DNA from: Periplaneta americana
Taxonomy: Eukaryota; Arthropoda; Insecta; Blattodea; Blattidae
DNA length: 64,000 nt
NCBI RefSeq assembly: GCF_040183065.1
Contig: NC_091122.1
Span: forward strand, 77,918,955 to 77,982,954
Reading direction: 5' to 3'
The position numbers were made by a program, and so were the translations under genes. Of the stretch, positions 4,740 to 53,938 are shown piece after piece. Under the pieces are notes generated by a model, which was not told where the DNA came from, did no database searches, and worked only from the letters and a program-made list of their open reading frames with translations. Positions within the stretch are counted from its first letter, which is position 1; each line of letters starts with the position of its first letter.

Positions 4740-7335
4740 TCGAATCGTATAATATGACCATTTTACCACTTTTGCCCACGCATCATACTGCAACATCCGA
4801 GACGTTACTAGACCTGATTATTACTAAGAACACGGACAGGGTACTGTCATACGGACAATTACCTGCACCAAGCATATCTGCTCATGACATCATTTACCTA
4901 ACATATTCACTACAATGCTCTAAAATGAAGCCAAATACAATAACTTTCCGCGACTTGAAACATATTGACGAGACTAGTTTCTATGAGGATGCTGTGCAAT
5001 TATCCTGGCACACGATCTGGACTGCACGCTCAGTGGATGACAAAGTGGACATTCTTAACGGACTTATTGTGTCACTGTACGACAAATACGCTCCACTAAA
5101 AACTAAACATGTTAAAAGGTGCCCAGCACCATGGATGACAACTAAGATAAAAGACCTGATGACCGACAGGGATTCCGCTTACAGAAAATACAGACGGGAT
5201 AAAACTGATGACAACCTGCGAAATTACAAACGACTGAGAAATACGACGAATCAAGGAATACGAAATACCAAACTGAAATATATGCACGGACTAATTGAAT
5301 CAAATGTAAACACTAGGGACATGTGGAAAAATATTAACTCAATGGGATTTGGAAATACAAAAGGACAGACACAACAAACCAGCATCTCATTAGAACGCCT
5401 CAATGAACACTTCACTACTCCGCCAACTAACAGTACTGACCATAACACACAGCGACAGACAATGGCAGAACCTCAGGTAGTTGACCCACTCAGAGACAGA
5501 TTTTACTTTTCATACGTTACACCTAGTGATGTGAAGAAAGCTCTTAAACGCAACAAATCCAAAGCGACAGGTTCTGACGACATTAGTATCGCAATGATAA
5601 ACAAACTTATTGACGTAATCTTACCAACACTGACACACATTTTCAACGCTTCGCTGACGACATCCATTTTTCCTAAAGCTTGGAAAAATGCTTTTGTGCG
5701 CCCTATACCCAAAGTTAAAACGCCGACTACTCCCAACGACTATCGACCTATTAGTATTCTACCTACCTTATCGAAAGCGTTAGAGAGGATAGTACACAGA
5801 CAACTCATTGACTACCTAAATAGATATGAACTCTTGGATACATATCAATCAGGTTTTAGGACTCGACACAGTACAGCAACTGCACTGTTGGAAGTAACGG
5901 AAGACATCCGAAAAGCTATGGACGAACGTAAAATTACAATACTGACCGTACTTGACTTCAGCAAAGCGTTTGACACTGTAAATATCGACTTACTGACGAG
6001 AAAATTACGATTACTCCAACTATCAGAAAGCACAGTCTCTTGGTTCTCCTCTTATCTCAGAGAACGTCAGCAGTGTGTTTCCATTGGAAGTCGAACTTCC
6101 TCATGGCGTATCGTTGATTCTGGAATCCCACAGGGATCTGTTCTATCACCACTACTATTCACTATTTACGTAAATGACATCCCTTCGACTCTACTGCACT
6201 GTAAGCATCACCTTTACGCAGACGATTTACAAATCTATAACCTTACAACCCCTGACTCACTCAATGACGCAATACAAAATCTTAACGTGGACCTTCAATC
6301 CATATCTGCATGGGCCAGAAAGTTTGGTTTGACTCTCAATGCAAGAAAATCACAAGCAATCCTAGTGGGACACCAACGTCTATCATGCAACATTACTCCT
6401 GCTCTTCCAGTCAAGTTAAACGACACAATAATCCCTTTTGCTTCCTGTGTTAAAAACCTTGGAGTTTACTTTGACACGCATTTAAACTGGAATTATCTAG
6501 TAACCCATATTATCAAAAAAGTGCTTTCCATACTACATTTGTTAAACAGCATTCGAAAATTCCTCCCTCTATCACTCAAGAAAATACTAGTGGAAACACT
6601 AGAAATGCCCCACTTCGATTATTGTGATTCTCTACTGATCGACCTCAATGTCAACCAGCCGCAAAGGTTACAACGTGTTCATAATTCTTGTGTTCGCTTC
6701 GTCTGCGATGTCCGTCGCGCTGACCACATTACCCCATTCTTCCAAACTCTAAACTGGCTACGGCTTAACGAACGTAGAAATTTTCATTCTCTTGTTCTCC
6801 TTTTCCAAGTCCTTCACACGTCTACACCTACCTACCTTGCCTCCCGTTTCAGTTACCTGTCATCATATCATAATCTCTTCACACGCACACAAAATAGCCT
6901 CATACTAGCCATACCAACACATAAGACTTCATCGTATTCATCATCATACACAATCTCGCTTTCGCGCTTGTAGAATACCCTGTCCAGTGACATCAGAGAC
7001 TGTCGGAATTTAGTAGCGTTCAAAAGCAAACTTATTAAGCATTTTCTTACTGCGTAGAGTAGGTTTAATTTTTACTTAGTTAATAAAAAATTTTCTCTCT
7101 TCTTAATTTTTATAATGAACAGTCTAGCTTTTATTAGTCTGTTAATTCTTTTAGTACTTTGATTTTTTATTGTATTTGTAAATGCAGTATTAATTGTAAT
7201 TATAATTGTAATTGTATTCTTTATATTGTAGTTGTAATCCCCTGGTAGAGGGGAAGAGAAAGCCTGATGGCCTTATCTCTACCAGGTTAAATAAATAAAT
7301 AAATATATATATAAATAAATATATAAAATAAATAA
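4740..7335 (+). mobile_element. LINE-A, CR1/Kiri-like, 5'-truncated
   Basis: This non-LTR retrotransposon copy starts inside the endonuclease domain and runs to a 3' microsatellite tail (AAATA/AAAT units, 7285-7335). Just before the tail is an imperfect hairpin (CTGGTAGAG ... CTCTACCAG, 7232-7283) matched by a similar hairpin at the end of LINE-B. A short simple-repeat tail rather than poly(A), with a structured end, is typical of the CR1/L2 group. It lies inside MULE-1 in the opposite orientation. Confidence 0.8.
4754..7057 (+). pseudogene. LINE-A ORF2: endonuclease tail plus reverse transcriptase
   Basis: The frame opens at ATG 4754 and encodes the last part of an APE-type endonuclease (LLDLIITKNTD, SAHDIIYLTY, residues 17-55) and then a full reverse transcriptase: PIPKVKTPTTPNDYRPISIL near residue 320, VLDFSKAFDTV with Asp about 401, PQGSVLSPLLFTIYVND and YADDLQIY (Tyr488, Asp490, Asp491). 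The C-terminal RVHNSCVRFVCDVRRADH block is typical of this clade. A TAG at 6971-6973 ends the 739-aa open frame, but the same frame continues NTLSSDIRDCRNLVAFKSKL to a TAG at 7055. Other family members have Trp at that place, so TGG to TAG is the likely lesion. The true ATG of a full-length element is missing; the start used here is internal. Confidence 0.85.
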
Positions 7336-14522: not shown

Positions 14523-15196
14523 ATGGGCCCTAAAAAGTGTGAGAAAAGTGAGGAAATTGAGGAAACTGTTAAGCGTGTTGTAAAGGAAGCTCTACAAGAC
14601 ACCGTATGCTGCAAGTTCTTGCCAACTTGATAAAAGAAACTGTAACGAACTCAGTTGTTACTGAACTACAGAAGACAATTGAATTCAATAACGAAGTAAT
14701 AAGTGAGTTGAAAACTGCTTTGGTAAAAAGGGACGAAAAAATCGAAGCCCTGGAAGCTAAAGTGGACTATCTAGAACAATATCAACGTAGGCAGTGTCTA
14801 AGGATCTTCGGGGTGGAAGAACAGGAGGCAGAAGACACCGACAATTTGGTTATGGAGGTAGGGAAACGGATCGGAGTAGATGTGAATGTGATGGATATTG
14901 ATAGGAGCCATAGGATTGGCAGGCGCGACGTTGGCAATGATAGGCCTAGACCTATCATTGTCAAGTTCGTGAGTTATCGGAAGAGGAGTGAAGTATTCAA
15001 AAATAAGCACCTACTTAAAAAAAAAACTGGTGTAACGATTCGAAAAGATCTGACCAGAATCCGGCATAACATTCTGAAAGAAGCCATCAATAAGTTTGGA
15101 GTGAATAGTGTGTGGACTCAGGACGGTGTTATCGTAGTGAACAGAGGTGACTCGAAGCGACGTGAGACATGCTGGAGCGATCTTCGCAACATTTAG
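14523..15196 (+). pseudogene. LINE-B ORF1: coiled coil plus RNA-binding domain
   Basis: ATG 14523 starts MGPKKCEKSEEIEETVKRVV; near 14603 the frame shifts by one and continues LANLIKETVTNSVVTELQKT to a stop at 15196. The middle is a heptad-like coiled coil (NNEVISELKTALVKRDEK, EALEAKVDYLEQYQ), followed by an RRM/Transposase-22-like domain (RRQCLRIFGVEE, DIDRSHRIGR, RPRPIIVKFVSYRKRSEVF). This is the architecture of LINE ORF1 proteins, which trimerise and bind the element RNA. It lies about 240 bp upstream of the ORF2 start. The single frameshift is the only lesion I see. Confidence 0.75.
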
Positions 15197-15433
15197 AAGT
15201 CGCGAGTTTTGTATTACGACACAAGGTTTAATTCTGTTAATTCTAGTTATAGTTACATAGTACTTAAGCCTATCTACTTTTTTTTTTTTGCTTTCTTATT
15301 TAATATTAACTTACTAGCTGTTAGTTTATATTGACAGGAAAAGTGTTGTGAAAGTAGTGATGGTCTTGATTGAAACTTTTAACAAAAAAGTAGAAGTAGT
15401 GTAGTTTAGACTAGTAGTGTAATATTCTTAGAG

Positions 15434-15531
15434 TTGGTAGAAGTGGACCCTAGTCAAACGGAAATTCTGACAGACTCTGACAATGACACTGACCTTCATA
15501 ATTCCCCTCCCCTTACCAGTAACAACCTGCC
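15434..15531 (+). pseudogene. LINE-B ORF2 N-terminus, cut by MULE-2
   Basis: A frame that opens at a TTG at 15434 (no ATG is present after the TAG at 15416) reads VEVDPSQTEILTDSDNDTDL and NSPPLTSNNLP up to the MULE-2 insertion. After removal of MULE-2 it continues in phase at 18959 as QQTANILQAAFSFHPNALRV and AHINA, the start of the endonuclease. The lack of an ATG may mean reinitiation from ORF1 or a lost start codon. Confidence 0.55.
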
Positions 15532-15718
15532 ACTCGACGTTCTGGGCAGCTCGGCTCCTCTGCTCCGCGCATGCGTAATTCGGCTTTACTCCCACTACGT
15601 TGCTGGAGTTGTCACTGGCGGGTTGTGTTTGAGTTTGTTTTGAGTCTCGTGCTATGTTTTTGTGGTTTCATTTTTATAACATTTCATTTCGTGTTTCATT
15701 GTAGTTATTGTGGTGGGT

Positions 15719-15758
<40 letters not shown>

Positions 15759-18700
15759 GGGTATGTGTGTATATAGCCTTATTTAGCGTTCTTATTTGTC
15801 AAGATGTCCACATTTAATTGTTTCACGTGTGAACTGTGTGACAAGACTTTTAGTAAAAGATTCAACTTAAAAAGACACTACAACAATATACATTCTGGGT
15901 ACTCTGGTACGGACCAAGAATCGTCCAGAACTACAGCTTTGAAGTGTGCTATATGTGTAAATACATTCAAAAAATTTACTGACTTCAGTGATCACCTTCC
16001 CATAGTGCATGATATAGAATTACAAACTAACGAATTAGAATTCGAAAATTCTAGTCATTTCAAAGAATGGAAAAAAAGTGTCGAGGAGCAAGAAACAGCT
16101 TCATATGTCAAAAATCGATCTGGAAGTACATATGCAGACAAAAAAATAGTTTATTATCAATGTCACCGTTCGGGAAATTACAGAAGTAAAGTTTCATCTC
16201 CAGGCAAGAGACAGAGAGAGATTAAAGTACAGGGATCGTCAAAAATTAATGCTTATTGCCCTGCCAGAATTAAGGCAGTATTTTTTAGTGATGGAAGTGT
16301 GCGGGTTAATCATTGTATAACCCATGTAGGACATAAAATGGAACTAGCTCATTTGACCTTACCGTCATGTGAAAGAAAAAATATAGCTTCAAAAATAGCC
16401 GCGAAAGTACCTTTTGAAGCTATCTTAGATGACGTACAGAGTTCTGTCGAAGATGAAATCAAGCGGAAACACCTTGTTACAAAGCAAGATTTACGAAATA
16501 TAATAAGAGAATTTTGTTTAGACAGCGACTCTGTACGCCATTCTGATGACGCGCTGAGTGTCGAGGCATGGGTAGAGAAAGAAAGGAGAAACGACGAAAA
16601 AAGTTGCGTTATTCTCTATAAGCCCAAAGGAGTGGATATGGCAGAATATCCTCAATTAAAAACTGAGGATTTCATGCTGGGCATTATGACAGAGGCACAG
16701 TCAGAGATACTTAAAAAATATGGCACTGACTGTATATGCATGGATTCTACTCATGGAACAAACGCGTACAGTTATGAAATGACAACACTGTTAGTTCTCG
16801 ATGACATGAGACAAGGATTCCCATGTGGATTTTACTTTTCGAACAGAAATGACCAAACCGGTCTAGACGTGTTTCTAAGGGCTGTAAAAGAGAAAGTAGG
16901 GCATATTGACACTAAGGTATTGATGACTGACATGGCCGAAGTCTTTTACAATTCTTGGAAAACCGTTATGAGCGACTGCGAAAAGAGGTTGTTTTGCAGC
17001 TGGCATGTCAAAAGAGCGTGGCAAAGACGACTAGATAAAATAAAGAACGAAGAGAAGAAGAAAGACACCTACATTAAAATTTGTGCTTTACATAATGAAT
17101 TAGACGAAAACGCCTTCGAAATGATGTTGCCTATCATGGTCAATGAGCTGTGCGCAGATGAAGAAACGCAAGATTTTGGACTATATTTAAAAAACAATTA
17201 CCTAAAAAACTGTCAGGCTTGGGCCTATTGCTATAGAAAAAATGCCGGCATAAACACAAACATGCATTTGGAAAGGCTTCATAGCATAGTCAAACACCTG
17301 TTTTTGAAAGGGAAAATGGTAAAGAGACTCGACATAGCAATTCATGCTATAATGCGATTCATAAGTCGCAAATTATTTGACCGTTTGATTGTACTCGAGA
17401 AGGGAAAAGTAACGAATAAACTCCGAAATGTAAGAGAGCGCCATAAAAAGTCCCTGTCTATGAGTGCGGAAAGTGTTGCAGTTTCTTCTCTAGATGCATG
17501 GAATGTATTTTCATCGTCGGCAAATGAAATGTATACTGTGACACTAATTGAGCCATCTTGTACTTGTACCCTGATTTGTGAGCATTGCAAAGCATGCATA
17601 CACAAATTTAATTGTACGTGTATTGATGCATGTATAAAGTGGAATATGTGCAAACATATACACTTGGTTTGCAGCACTATAGAGACGAAAGGAACTTCCC
17701 ACACAAAGACTGAATCGGTTAATGAAGATGATGATTTTGTTTCTAACCCTGGTCTTCAAATTGAGGAGGAAGAAGAGGCAAAATTGAAAGAAAAAAATGC
17801 GATTTTAAATTATGTAGGGAATGGTGATAACTTTAAATCTCAAAATGTGAATATAGAGGAAATGAAAATGGAGGTTTCAAATGAATTTCATTCTATTTTG
17901 GACAAAGTCACACAACCTAATCAAGTAGTCTTAATTAGAAAAATGCTAAAAAATATAGTGCCGTTGTTGGATTCTGTTCAAGATGTCACAAGAAGTTTCC
18001 CAGATGTGACAAAAAAAATTGACACAAGGAAGAAAATTGACCCTCAACGAAGATTCACGATTAGAAAAAAGAAATCAAATAATAAAGTAGTTCCAAAACC
18101 CACATCTGCAGAGACTCAAACTATTGCAGCCCACACTATAATTGGACATCTGTCACGTGCTGGTACAAGCAATGAAGATACACAATTTCCTGATGTGTAG
18201 AACTGTTTTATAGTTCAGGCTGTGTAAAATAAAACTCTCATTTTATGTAAATAGATAATCATTATTGATGTTATGAAAAATAGGCCTTATTATTTTAAAC
18301 GGAATACGTGTGATGTGAAAGTGATAGTGTGCAATTAAGACTTAACTGTAATATGGATTAAAACAGTGACTGATGTCATTAAGAAGAGTCATATATCGTA
18401 ACCTACTTCAGTGTTCACGACTTCTGCTAAATTGAAGGTGAGTAATCTAAATACTAATCGTTTAGATCAGTGATCACTGATATGAACCGCCTACCATAGA
18501 TGTAAGTGCCACAAATTAAACATTTACAACTAAGTTCATAATGTTATGGTGTAAAATAGAGAAAAAGTCAATAAGTGACTTATTTTGAATGTTGAATTTG
18601 CATAAACTGCATGCATTTGGTTATCACTGGTCTTGGTTCCGTAATTCTTTATATTTTCAATTAGCTGCCTATAAATATCGTCTTTGATAGCCATTCTAAA

Positions 18701-18958
18701 AGGGTTGGAGAAATATGAGAACAGATAAAATATTTTCTCGCGTTTTTAATGTTAGATATTATATTTAATATTTAATGACACATGTTAAATAGAATATAAT
18801 AGAATAGAATATAACTATGTAACAGTAAAAATGTATTCAATCATCGTAGACAAATACATTGCGAAAATACGAGCAATCGTGACGATATAACTGAAGAGCC
18901 AACAGCGCATGCGCGGAGCTGAGGAGCCGAGCTGTCCAGAACGTCGAGTCAACCTGCC
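15523..18958 (+). mobile_element. MULE-2, intact Mutator/Phantom-like transposon
   Basis: A perfect 9-bp target duplication CAACCTGCC lies at 15523-15531 and 18950-18958. The TIRs are 44 bp, at 15532-15575 and 18906-18949, beginning ACTCGACGTTCTGG and differing at 2 positions. Total length between the duplications is 3418 bp. The 9-bp duplication, long TIRs and a MULE-type transposase all agree. An AT dinucleotide tract (15720-15755) lies in the 5' leader. The element sits in LINE-B ORF2 in the same orientation. Well-preserved ends and an open transposase suggest recent insertion. Confidence 0.93.
15804..18200 (+). CDS. MULE-2 transposase (Mutator-like, C2H2 and SWIM fingers)
   Basis: This 798-aa open frame from ATG 15804 is the transposase of MULE-2. 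Two C2H2 fingers lie at residues 9-30 (CELCDKTFSKRFNLKRH start) and about 48-71. They are followed by a FLYWCH/GCM-like Cys-His region (YYQCHRSG, YCPARIKAVFF, HCITHVGH; about 115-185), likely for end binding. The MULE DDE core has Asp314 in CMDSTHGTNAY, Asp376 in LMTDMAE, the C(x2)H signature at Cys398-His401 (CSWH) and Glu490 in MHLERLHS. A SWIM-type finger (CTCIDACIKWNMCKH) lies near residues 605-620, and the C-terminus is acidic then basic. All expected catalytic residues are present, and there is no frameshift. The two N-terminal C2H2 fingers point to an animal Phantom-like lineage (from memory). The alternative, a domesticated gene, is unlikely given the flanking TIRs. Confidence 0.9.
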   Translation: MSTFNCFTCELCDKTFSKRFNLKRHYNNIHSGYSGTDQESSRTTALKCAICVNTFKKFTDFSDHLPIVHDIELQTNELEFENSSHFKEWKKSVEEQETASYVKNRSGSTYADKKIVYYQCHRSGNYRSKVSSPGKRQREIKVQGSSKINAYCPARIKAVFFSDGSVRVNHCITHVGHKMELAHLTLPSCERKNIASKIAAKVPFEAILDDVQSSVEDEIKRKHLVTKQDLRNIIREFCLDSDSVRHSDDALSVEAWVEKERRNDEKSCVILYKPKGVDMAEYPQLKTEDFMLGIMTEAQSEILKKYGTDCICMDSTHGTNAYSYEMTTLLVLDDMRQGFPCGFYFSNRNDQTGLDVFLRAVKEKVGHIDTKVLMTDMAEVFYNSWKTVMSDCEKRLFCSWHVKRAWQRRLDKIKNEEKKKDTYIKICALHNELDENAFEMMLPIMVNELCADEETQDFGLYLKNNYLKNCQAWAYCYRKNAGINTNMHLERLHSIVKHLFLKGKMVKRLDIAIHAIMRFISRKLFDRLIVLEKGKVTNKLRNVRERHKKSLSMSAESVAVSSLDAWNVFSSSANEMYTVTLIEPSCTCTLICEHCKACIHKFNCTCIDACIKWNMCKHIHLVCSTIETKGTSHTKTESVNEDDDFVSNPGLQIEEEEEAKLKEKNAILNYVGNGDNFKSQNVNIEEMKMEVSNEFHSILDKVTQPNQVVLIRKMLKNIVPLLDSVQDVTRSFPDVTKKIDTRKKIDPQRRFTIRKKKSNNKVVPKPTSAETQTIAAHTIIGHLSRAGTSNEDTQFPDV

Positions 18959-20137
18959 CCAGCAGACAGCAAATATCTTACAAGCCGCTTTCTCTTTCCA
19001 CCCCAATGCTCTTCGAGTCGCACACATAAACGCTTAAAGTATTTTAGCACACATTGACACTTTTACGCTATATTTTCCCCACTAAACTTGCACGCCATCT
19101 TTATCCTCTTCCCTAATTCACTTCGACGGATACAATCTACTTCGCAACGATCGCTTAAATAAGCGGGGAGGTGGTGTTGCAGCCTTCATTAGATCGGATC
19201 TCGAGCCCAAAGTTATTCACCAATCCCCCGGCGAATATTCCTCTCGCCCTGAATTTCTCTTCGTAGAAATACGAGTTAGTTTTCAGAAATGTTTGCTGTG
19301 TATTGTTTATAAGCCTCCGAAGGTTAATTTTTTAGCTGACCTGGTGACATCCCTACAGAACCTATTGCCATATTATGAACACGTAATCGTAATGAGTGAC
19401 TTTAATACAAATCTACTTGCCGCTGACTCAATACAGACGACACAACTAAAGACAATGTTCCATGCTTGTGACATGACTATCCTTCCACTTAAACCCACTC
19501 ATACCGCCTACTCAGAAGCGCTCCTTGACTTAATCATCACTAATAATCCTTCCAAAGTTCTCTCACATGGACAGCTACCTGCGTCTGGAATATCTTCCCA
19601 CGATATAATATATGTAATATAGGCCTACGCATTGCAGTGTCTCAAAATGACAACCAAAATATCTACTTATAGACACCTAAAACGTATTGACAATTCTGCT
19701 TTAATAGACGACGCATTACGTATACCCTGGAACGCAATATGGAAGTTACGAACTGTGGACGAGAAGATAGAACAGCTAAATAACTTTATTATAGACTTGT
19801 ATGACCGACATGCTCCTCTAAAAACTAGACGTGTGAGAAGACTGCCTGCGCCGTGGATGACTGCTGACATACGCAACATGATGGTTGAACTAGATTCGGC
19901 ATATCGAAAATATAGACGAGACACAAACGAAACTAATTTTAACAGGTACAAGCAACTGAGAAACAGAACCAGCCAGACTGTAAGGAATGCTAAAATCCGA
20001 CATGCATACAGCCTTACTGAACCAGGAACTAGCCCCTCTACGCTATGGAGACATGTGCAGACAATGGGATTAAGACAGACAAAGACCCAGGTAGACGGCA
20101 ACTCAATATCACTGGAACGGCTCAATGACCACTTTAA
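18959..20137 (+). pseudogene. LINE-B ORF2: endonuclease and linker
   Basis: The frame continues from the ORF2 N-terminus: ALRVAHINA, a TAA at 19035-19037 where family members have Gln (HINAQS), SILAHIDTFTLYF, a second stop, and a gap that removes the expected SETW region. It then reads GYNLLRNDRLNKRGGGVA, LCIVYKPPK, MSDFNTNLL, LLDLIITNN and SSHDII. Another stop (19620-19622) precedes ALQCLKMTTKISTYRHLKRI and the linker up to ERLNDHF at the MITE. The endonuclease would nick the target DNA. Here it is disabled by stops and by loss of its catalytic Glu region. Confidence 0.75.
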
Positions 20138-21129
20138 GGCCCGATTGTATAAACCATTTAATCTTAGATCAGAGGTTAAATTGATCCTTGTTTCAGCTGA
20201 ACTTGGAATTTTGTGTTGTATAAAGTCTAATCTGAGATTAATTTGTCTCAAACTAAAGTCAACTTTGACTGAAGAAATTTCTCCGATTAAGTTAGATGAT
20301 CCAAGTTCAGTTATTTCTTTTCTGTTTGAAATATACGAGTGACAGATTGTGCAAATAAAATATCCATTATTATTAATATTAATAGATATGTTAGGTACAT
20401 TTATATATATTTCTTTCAATTTCTTGCCTTAATACACAAACAATCTTATATTTTATAAGGCTCTATCGTGTTCAGCATTATCAAATAACATAACCTATAA
20501 TTATATTATGTTTATAACAACCATTAATTATTCATGGATATGATAGGTACATTCATAAATGTTCAATTAACTGTATTACTAAACGAAAATTGTCGTTTTA
20601 TAAAGCTTTATTATGTTTAGCAGTATCAAACACCATAACATGATAACAACTTGGAGAACAGTCAGCCTTCTTCTTATTGTCCGCCATTATTTACATTACA
20701 CAAAAAAAAAAAAAACAGTGTCTGCAACAGAGTGTATGGAAAGTCGCCAAAAAGTAGTTGCAAAGTCGCTAGATTTCTCATTATCAACAAAGAAAGCTTA
20801 CATTTTGTCACTATGGGGTGCTAAAAAGGTCACTAAATCCCTATTTAAGCAATATAAAAGTTAAAAGAAATTGTTGTTGAAAAAGAGTTAAAGTCGCTAG
20901 ATTGGCAACACTGAACAAACCTGTATAACATGGTCCGCGCATCACGTATTTCACCTGTTTATGCGATGTTGCCAAATCCTTTTCACGTGAACTTAGATTG
21001 CATTTGAACCAAGGTAATTTGATCGCAGAAAAGTTTTATACAATAGAAGAAGTGTCTGAACTCGGTTCACTTTTCGATCTTCGATCAAAGTTGATCTTTA
21101 GTCAGGGAGTTTTATAAAATTGGGCCTAA
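20135..21129. mobile_element. PIF/Harbinger-type MITE in LINE-B
   Basis: An insert of 989 bp (20138-21126) with imperfect TIRs GGCCCGATTGTATAAA and, from the right end, GGCCCAATTTTATAAA. It is flanked by TAA at 20135-20137 and 21127-21129. A 3-bp TAA/TTA duplication with GG(G/C)CC-type ends is the PIF/Harbinger signature. Subterminal GATC-rich words repeat at both ends (TTAGATCAG...TTGATC on the left, GATCAACTTTGATC on the right, inverted). No transposase is present. Excision in silico gives LNDHFKKTHTTTLSP in the LINE frame. Confidence 0.8.
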
Positions 21130-22780
21130 GAAAACGCACACTACAACCCTTAGCCCCATTGACAAACAACAGACAATCGATGAACTCTTAAACTTACGGA
21201 CCAACCCCTCAAGGGAAAAATTTCACTTTTGGTATATTACGCAATCTGACGTAAAGAAAGCCCTGAAACGAATCACAACTAAAGCAGAAGGACCAGACCA
21301 CGTCAATATTTCGTTAATAAACAAAATCATAGATGTAATACTACCGACTGTGACACACATTTTCAATGCCTCAATTATGACTTCGACTTACCCACAGCAA
21401 TGGAAACTCGCTTTTGTCCACCCAATTCCCAAGACCAAAACACCGACATCTTATAACGACTACAGACCTATCAGCATCCTACCTGCCCTATCCAAAGCAT
21501 TGTACACAAGCAACTGACAGAATACTTAAACAAATACAAACTTCTCGACTCTTATCAATCAGGTTTCAGGGCCGGACATAACACAAGTACAGCATTACTT
21601 AAAATCACGGAAGACCTACGCGAGGCCCAGGACGAACGTAAATTGACAATAATGACTTTACTTGACTTCAGCAAAGCCTTCGATTCTGTAGACATTGACT
21701 TGTTAATATGTAAACTCAGAAGACTACACCTAGAAGAGCACGTTGTCCTGTGGTTTGCCTCTTACCTTAATGGCCGCCAACAAAGTGTGATAGCTGGAAA
21801 TCGTTCTTTCTCTTGGCAGGCCGTGAGGTCAGGGATCCCACAGGGATCAGTTCTTGGCCCTTTACTATTTACAATTTATATCAACGACATATCAGAATCT
21901 CTAAAGTACTGCCGACACCATCTCTATGCAGACGACCTTCAAATATACATAAAATTCCACACTGACGAAATAAAAGATGCAATAACTAAAATTAATGACG
22001 GTCTGGACTCAATCTGGACATGGACACGGAAATTCCGACTTAAACTAAATCCAGAAAAATCACAGTCAATCATTGTGGGTCATTCACGTTTGTTAAGTAC
22101 TATTACCGTACCAAATTTGTCCCCGATTAAAATACACGGCACCGAAATTCCGTTCAGTGAATCAGTAAAGAATCTAGGTATTTATATGGATAAAAGTTTA
22201 AATTGGAACATTCAAGTTCAGAAACCTACAAAAAAGTATTCTCATTAATCCACTCGTTTAGACGATTGAAGAATTTTCTACCCTTTTCCATGAAAAAAAT
22301 GTTAGTGCAAACACTCGTGATGCCCCACTTCGATTACTGTAATATTCTGCTTACTGACCTAAGCGTTACTTCGGCGCAGAGACTACAACGTGTTCATAAT
22401 ATGTGCGTCCGTTTCGTCTGCAATATTCGCCGGGCTGATCACGTAACACCATCCCTCGAAATGTTGTCCTGGCTCCGTCTAGAAGAACGTAGGAAAATCC
22501 ACTGTCTTTCCCTTCTCTTTCACATATTGCATTTCTCCACTCCTGTCTATCTTGCGTCTCGTTTTCAAAATTTATCCACCTATCATAACCTAGACACGCG
22601 ATCACAACACTCCTCAATATTATCCATTCCCTCCCACCGACCATCCTCATATTCATCTTCTTTCACTGTGGCTGTTCCTCGACTTGAATTCCCTACCGAC
22701 TAATGTCAGGGACTGTCAGACATCAAACCAATTTAAGAATAGGCTAACGAGATATTTTTCTAACAATTCTTGTTAACAAT
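21130..22780 (+). pseudogene. LINE-B ORF2: reverse transcriptase, frameshifted
   Basis: It reads FHFWYITQSDVKKALKRITT, FVHPIPKTKTPTSYNDYRPI and LPALSKAL, then a deletion of about 10 bp near 21500 shifts the frame (HKQLTEYLNKYKLLDSYQSG follows). The open frame 21643-22248 has LLDFSKAFDSVDID, IPQGSVLGPLLFTIYINDI and YADDLQIY. A shift near 22225 leads to LIHSFRRLKNFLPFSMKKM and RVHNMCVRFVCNIRRADH (22203-22703), and a final shift leads to TNVRDCQTSNQFKNRLTRYF ending near 22775. RT motifs including YADD are intact but split. It is the same family as LINE-A. Confidence 0.85.
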
Positions 22781-32439: not shown

Positions 32440-33500
<1,061 letters not shown>

Positions 33501-40886: not shown

Positions 40887-43098
<2,212 letters not shown>

Positions 43099-53724: not shown

Positions 53725-53938
53725 ACCTGTAAATTGAACATTTTATTAATAAATGAACAATAAAAAGTATCGGCTTCTATGACTTAATCGGGGTAAAATA
53801 CTTCGACGTTTTTTCCGACGTATGTAGTATAATTTGAATATTTCATTAATAAACAAACAATTAAAAAGTATCGGCTTCTATGTCTTAATCGGGGTAAAAT
53901 ACTTCGAATTTTTTTTTTTTTTTATGTTTGTAGTGTAA
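53725..53938. repeat. Tandem duplication of about 105 bp
   Basis: AAAAAGTATCGGCTTCTATG and CTTAATCGGGGTAAAATACT occur twice (about 53760-53805 and 53867-53912) with flanking ATTTYATTAATAAAYRAACA. It lies within the hAT-ended element, left of piggyBac-2. Confidence 0.9.

What the first reader, a model, noticed from the sequence alone, without database searches (positions are those of the whole stretch)
15523..18958. Intact Mutator/Phantom-like transposon with perfect 9-bp target duplication
The TIRs (44 bp, 2 mismatches), a perfect 9-bp duplication and an uninterrupted 798-aa transposase with D314, D376, CxxH, E490, two N-terminal C2H2 fingers and a SWIM finger make this the best candidate for a recently active autonomous element in the window. 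Tandem C2H2 fingers ahead of a FLYWCH/GCM-like region in a MULE transposase may be an unusual architecture.
Basis: partly seen in the sequence, partly recalled or inferred. Interest (0 to 1): 0.75.

Follow-up and report, generated by a model that had tools for sequence, protein, structure and literature searches.

The report
Intact Mutator-type transposon, likely cockroach
This is a complete, apparently undamaged jumping gene of the Mutator type, probably from the American cockroach, that landed inside an older dead jumping gene; it is a clean example of a known kind rather than something new.

Summary
The element is 3,418 bp (15532-18949), with 44-bp inverted repeats (2 mismatches), a perfect 9-bp duplication (CAACCTGCC) and an unbroken 798-aa transposase ORF. 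Pfam places the protein in the MULE family. Its predicted fold is closest to ISCth4, recalled as an IS256-family transposase. The DDE triad and the counterparts of the H and W tested by mutation in mosquito Muta1 are present. Removing the element and one duplication gives one reading frame through the second ORF of a decayed LINE, which supports the insertion site. Two interpretations are not upheld. 'Phantom' is unproven: C2H2 fingers and host range fit the published Spectre description better, but no reference sequences were available for a tree. N-terminal C2H2 fingers are not unusual: 47 of 66 relatives that hold the middle zinc domain carry one ahead of it. A predicted Periplaneta americana protein carries 59 identical residues, so that is the likely host. 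Recent activity is plausible but unproven: the genome search did not complete, so copy number is unknown. Verdict: an intact new member of a known kind.

The parts
15523..15531 (.). left target-site duplication CAACCTGCC
   Evidence: identical to 18950-18958
15532..15575 (+). left terminal inverted repeat, 44 bp
   Evidence: 95% complementary to 18906-18949
15804..18200 (+). transposase ORF, 798 aa
   Evidence: uninterrupted ATG-to-stop ORF; PF10551 MULE and PF21056 above their cut-offs; 83 homologues at E <= 0.001
15828..16010 (+). two C2H2 zinc-finger motifs (residues 9-30 and 48-69)
   Evidence: motifs; PF00096 22.2 bits for finger 1, below its 25.2 cut-off; of 30 relatives in A2, 23 have a residue at the finger 1 ligands (same letter in 20-23) and 23 or 27 at those of finger 2 (all the same)
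16023..16337 (+). WRKY-GCM1/FLYWCH-type zinc domain (about residues 74-178; ligands C120, C152, H174, H177)
16743..17273 (+). DDE catalytic core: D314 (16743), D376 (16929), CxxH with H401 (17004), W473 (17220), E490 (17271)
17559..17663 (+). Cys/His-rich block: two CxCx9CxH motifs in tandem (residues 586-600 and 604-618, plus H620), the second being the SWIM motif
   Evidence: motif scans; ligands the same in 28-30 of 30 relatives of A2
18228..18233 (+). candidate polyadenylation signal AATAAA, shortly after the stop codon
   Evidence: sequence scan
18906..18949 (-). right terminal inverted repeat, 44 bp
18950..18958 (.). right target-site duplication CAACCTGCC
14606..22685 (+). target: decayed LINE (possible ORF1 14606-15196; second ORF from about 15425 to 22685), interrupted by the element ahead of its endonuclease region
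   Evidence: RVT_1 in 21643-22245; one in-frame tblastn alignment across the joined flanks for 4 of the 5 LINE proteins tested

Best explanation
A structurally complete, probably autonomous MULE (Mutator superfamily) DNA transposon, most likely of Periplaneta americana, inserted in the second ORF of an older LINE. Inferred mechanism: the 798-aa protein is made from the element's own ORF; its zinc modules (two C2H2 fingers, a WRKY-GCM1/FLYWCH-type domain and the Cys/His-rich SWIM block) recognise the 44-bp TIRs and help assemble the complex; the RNase H-like DDE core (D314, D376, E490, with H401 and W473) cuts the element out and joins it to a target cut with a 9-bp stagger, whose repair gives the 9-bp duplication. 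Shown: TIRs, duplication, intact ORF, conserved catalytic and zinc residues, predicted fold, interrupted LINE. Inferred: DNA binding by each zinc module, catalysis, and recent mobility.
Against: No copy count, transcript or polymorphism data: the genome search did not complete (13 tries). TIR identity is 42/44, not perfect. The load test is only marginally significant and assumes the LINE was intact on arrival. The LINE alignments reach only 8-36 weakly similar residues left of the junction, and a 9-bp duplication keeps the frame whether counted once or twice. The two nearest relatives in the tree, P0003 and P0005, lack the standard first catalytic motif in a simple scan, so neighbouring lineages include broken copies.
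Confidence: 0.9

Rival explanations
1. The copy is structurally intact but no longer mobile: silenced, or with a subtly defective transposase, a leftover of a past burst.
For: No activity evidence of any kind is in hand; 2 TIR mismatches; the nearest relatives lack the standard motif.
Against: All tested catalytic and zinc positions are intact, the duplication is perfect, and it carries fewer disabling changes than the LINE it sits in.
Confidence: 0.4
2. The ORF is a domesticated host gene derived from a MULE.
For: PF21056 is named for the proteins ZSWIM1/3; a stretch of the same sequence appears in a predicted Periplaneta gene model.
Against: TIRs and TSD are intact and the ORF sits within a dead LINE; domesticated genes normally lose their TIRs (recalled).
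Confidence: 0.03
3. The element belongs to the Phantom family proper (group 20 of Dupeyron et al. 2019).
For: Phantom elements have 8-10 bp TSDs, variable TIRs and none, FLYWCH or SWIM fingers, mostly compatible. BFVD's best fold match is a bracovirus protein (O92526, E 1.1e-11), and the title of Marquez and Pritham 2010, seen in a reference list, says Phantom is found in insect viruses.
Against: The table of Dupeyron et al. gives C2H2 to Spectre and not to Phantom; Muta1, put in Phantom there, is 504 aa with FLYWCH at residues 24-92, whereas this protein is 798 aa with C2H2 fingers first.
Confidence: 0.2

Closest known systems
Spectre (MULE group 8, Dupeyron et al. 2019, PMC6446971)
   Same: Arthropod MULE with C2H2 zinc finger; flanked by TIRs and TSD; listed hosts include Nilaparvata lugens and Parasteatoda tepidariorum, which also gave homologues here
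   Different: The one complete Spectre has 74-bp TIRs, an 8-bp TSD and two ORFs by the text (76 bp and one ORF in the table); this has 44 bp, 9 bp and one ORF. Not tested by tree.
Phantom / Muta (MULE group 20)
   Same: TSD length range; FLYWCH in 13 of 14 Muta families and SWIM in one; counterparts of the functional residues of Muta1
   Different: No C2H2 finger in the published description; Muta1 transposase is 504 aa
ISCth4 transposase (recalled as IS256 family)
   Same: Nearest solved fold over residues 241-613
   Different: About 11% identity; bacterial and without C2H2 or WRKY-GCM1 modules (both from recall)
Uncharacterised proteins P0001, P0002 (Macrosteles), P0003, P0004 (Anabrus), P0005
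   Same: 48-56% identical in A1 (P0005, not in A1: 52%); same general layout
   Different: P0003 and P0005 lack the standard DxTH motif; their DNA could not be fetched, so TIRs are unknown

Membership tests
MULE (Mutator) superfamily | MULE transposase domain | tested here: met
   PF10551, 38.5 bits, cut-off 27.6
MULE (Mutator) superfamily | DDE triad with CxxH motif after the second D | tested here: met
   D314, D376, C398/H401, E490
MULE (Mutator) superfamily | 8-11 bp target-site duplication | tested here: met
   9 bp, 9/9; range from PMC6446971
MULE (Mutator) superfamily | terminal inverted repeats (present in most members) | tested here: met
   44 bp, 42 complementary
Spectre | C2H2 zinc finger with the transposase | tested here: met
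   two motifs at the N-terminus of the same ORF
Spectre | 8-bp TSD and 74-76 bp TIR, as in the one complete element | tested here: not met
   9 bp and 44 bp; known from one element only, so weak as a definition
Spectre | position in the Spectre clade of the DDE tree | not testable with these tools
Phantom | position in group 20 of the DDE tree | not testable with these tools
   as above; Marquez and Pritham 2010 not held
Phantom | FLYWCH or SWIM zinc finger (or none) | tested here: inconclusive
   SWIM motif present; no Pfam FLYWCH or SWIM match at E up to 10; WRKY-GCM1-type fold at residues 74-178
Ghost | 84 residues and gaps between first and second D (PMC13359780) | tested here: inconclusive
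   61 residues lie between D314 and D376, but the published figure counts alignment gaps
hAT superfamily | 8-bp TSD and hAT dimerisation domain (recalled) | tested here: not met
   9-bp TSD; no hAT family among the Pfam matches at E up to 10; Hermes is a weaker fold match than ISCth4
domesticated ZSWIM1/3-like gene | no TIRs or TSD (recalled) | tested here: not met
   both present

The most novel reading that the evidence does not exclude
The element represents an undescribed, still mobile arthropod MULE family whose transposase combines three zinc DNA-binding modules (C2H2 pair, WRKY-GCM1/FLYWCH-type domain, tandem SWIM-like block), and a fragment of the same sequence is used as an exon of a Periplaneta NIT-domain gene.
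Probability: 0.12. Interest if true: 0.5.

Novelty: new member of a known kind. Interest (0 to 1): 0.3.

Why it matters
Intact animal MULEs with clean ends are good candidates for transposition assays: Muta1 from a mosquito moves in yeast, and a 2026 survey reports complete MULEs in 222 of 4,268 arthropod genomes, two of the species Blattodea. This copy gives exact ends, an intact ORF and a target whose decay can be compared. Two wider points: C2H2 fingers are common in this arthropod MULE group, and such ORFs can end up inside predicted host gene models.

Tried and rejected
Unusual architecture: rejected. A first count (41 of 42 with C2H2) took only proteins with at least 280 aa before a D/E-x-T-H motif, which favours finger-bearing ones. 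Without that bias: 47 of 66 with the middle-domain pattern, or 43 of 63 with at least 180 aa. Most finger-less rows start just before the middle domain and may be truncated predictions; that was not checked on DNA. All counts use regular expressions; the loose C2H2 one also fits 191 of 2,100 shuffled N-termini.

Rows dropped: A2 (31 rows) omits 7 of the 38 rows of A1 (P0003, P0010, P0014, P0050, P0057, P0063, P0081), which looked broken, carried inserts or were divergent; the 30-of-30 counts are on A2. On A1, H401 and E490 are invariant and D314, D376, C398 and W473 are at 90% or more. The tree took only the 57 of P0001-P0083 with at least 560 aa. A note says 60 identical residues; one search gives 59.

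Full report
What is there. Between 15532 and 18949 lies a 3,418-bp element with 44-bp terminal inverted repeats (42 of 44 complementary) flanked by CAACCTGCC on both sides. Similarity between the ends stops after 44 bp. One ORF, 15804-18200, encodes 798 residues without a stop, with an AATAAA at 18228 shortly after the stop codon. No second copy of the TIR (up to 16 mismatches in 44) and no convincing transposase relic lies elsewhere in the window.

What the protein is. Pfam gives MULE (PF10551) and ZSWIM1-3_RNaseH-like (PF21056) above their cut-offs; its C2H2 matches are below theirs. The database search returned 83 homologues at E of 0.001 or better; the best-scoring is 54% identical over 94% of the query, and the highest identity listed is 56% over 55% (P0012, Macrosteles). 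Where a host is named it is an arthropod, except a lancelet for the weakest hit (P0083); many rows carry no name. A profile search gave 102 proteins at E of 1e-10 or better, the same 83 among them. In the 31-row alignment A2, D314, D376, H401, W473 and E490 are the same in all 30 relatives, as are C588, C598, H600, C604, C606, C616, H618 and H620. By motif and spacing these five match D214, D283, H307, W401 and E419 of Muta1, whose mutation abolished or reduced transposition in yeast (passages read, not the whole paper); the pairing is mine. A2 leaves out 7 of the 38 rows of A1; on A1 H401 and E490 are invariant and the other three are at 90% or more.

Architecture. Of the 102 family proteins, 66 match a pattern for the middle domain; 47 of these have a C2H2 motif before it, and most of the other 19 begin shortly before the domain. 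Among the 42 with at least 280 residues before a D/E-x-T-H motif, 41 have one, but that cut favours finger-bearing proteins; at 180 residues it is 43 of 63. The loose motif fits 191 of 2,100 shuffled N-termini. The fingers are therefore common here, not unusual. The C-terminal block holds two CxCx9CxH motifs in tandem; that exact spacing occurs in 37 of 103 sequences (window included), and a looser tandem form in 39 of the 57 with a SWIM motif. One paper search for SWIM fingers in tandem in MULE transposases (8 of 219 papers listed, titles and abstract starts only) showed no title on the subject, which is no proof of novelty.

Insertion site. The element splits a LINE. With the element and one duplication removed, LINE proteins P0085, P0086, P0088 and P0091 align in one frame from the left flank (starting at 15491, 15506, 15509 and 15425) through the junction to 20135-20174; the fifth tested, P0084, aligns only from 19392 (5 of 120 fetched LINE proteins used). 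The part left of the junction is short (8-36 residues) and weakly similar, and since nine is a multiple of three the frame would hold with one or two copies of the duplication. The LINE carries 3 stops, 2 frameshifts and an insertion of about 1 kb; the transposase has no stop or frameshift in 798 codons (P 0.015 by Poisson, 0.047 by binomial). This points, weakly, to a MULE insertion late in the life of the LINE copy.

Host and other copies. A predicted Periplaneta americana protein, ANN_19355 (P0222), holds residues 241-299 of this transposase without a change and continues into unrelated sequence; its source name mentions a nitrate/nitrite sensing protein. The next best of the 102 family proteins is 69% identical over that stretch. 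The host is thus probably P. americana. The rest of P0222 has no significant match in the window, so it may be this copy, spliced over a long distance in a gene model, or a second copy. The DNA at both edges has plausible splice sites (acceptor TTTAGACAG, donor CA|GTCAGA; my reading). A gene-prediction artefact is the simplest account. PMC12774602 (passages only) reports the P. americana genome as 24.3% DNA transposons, primarily Tc1-Mariner and hAT; MULE and Mutator have 0 occurrences in its main text.

Placement. Dupeyron et al. 2019 (PMC6446971; passages and section 5 read) list Spectre with C2H2, Ghost with SWIM, and Phantom with none, FLYWCH or SWIM. Chen et al. 2026 (PMC13359780; parts 1-3 of 5 read) divide arthropod MULEs into twelve clades that include all three. 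By description this element sits nearest Spectre, but its TSD and TIR lengths differ from the one complete Spectre and no sequence comparison was possible. My own tree (57 relatives of at least 560 aa plus the window) puts it with P0003 and P0005 (100/98) in a group of six with P0001, P0002 (Macrosteles) and P0009 (Lygus) (100/100).

Mechanism and limits. Cut-and-paste transposition by a DDE enzyme is what the anatomy says; TIR binding by the zinc modules and present activity are inferred. Copy number, transcripts and polymorphism are untested because the genome search did not answer in 13 tries. The finding is a well-preserved new member of a known kind.

Noticed in passing
32650-33500: A perfect (GATA)n array, about 213 copies over 851 bp at 100% match; long minus-strand reading frames there are artefacts of it.
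   Followed up: no
20138-21126: A second insertion in the same LINE ORF: about 989 bp with ends starting GGCCC and a TAA duplication, like a PIF/Harbinger MITE (label recalled; boundaries read by eye from the sequence printed).
   Followed up: partly
16524-16700: 59 residues identical to part of the predicted Periplaneta protein ANN_19355 (P0222), whose model joins them to unrelated sequence: exonised MULE fragment or prediction artefact.
   Followed up: partly
4754-6973: An unbroken 739-aa reverse-transcriptase ORF of a related LINE, 65% identical in DNA over 1.4 kb to the LINE that hosts the element.
   Followed up: partly
41369-42853: A 494-aa ORF with DUF659, a domain recalled as typical of hAT-like transposases.
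   Followed up: no
   Followed up: partly
15804-18200 (model of the whole transposase): The best BFVD fold match is an uncharacterised 544-aa bracovirus protein, O92526 (E 1.1e-11, 15% identity), possibly a MULE carried by that virus.
   Followed up: no
53730-53915: A 101-bp unit repeated 1.9 times at 89% match.
   Followed up: no
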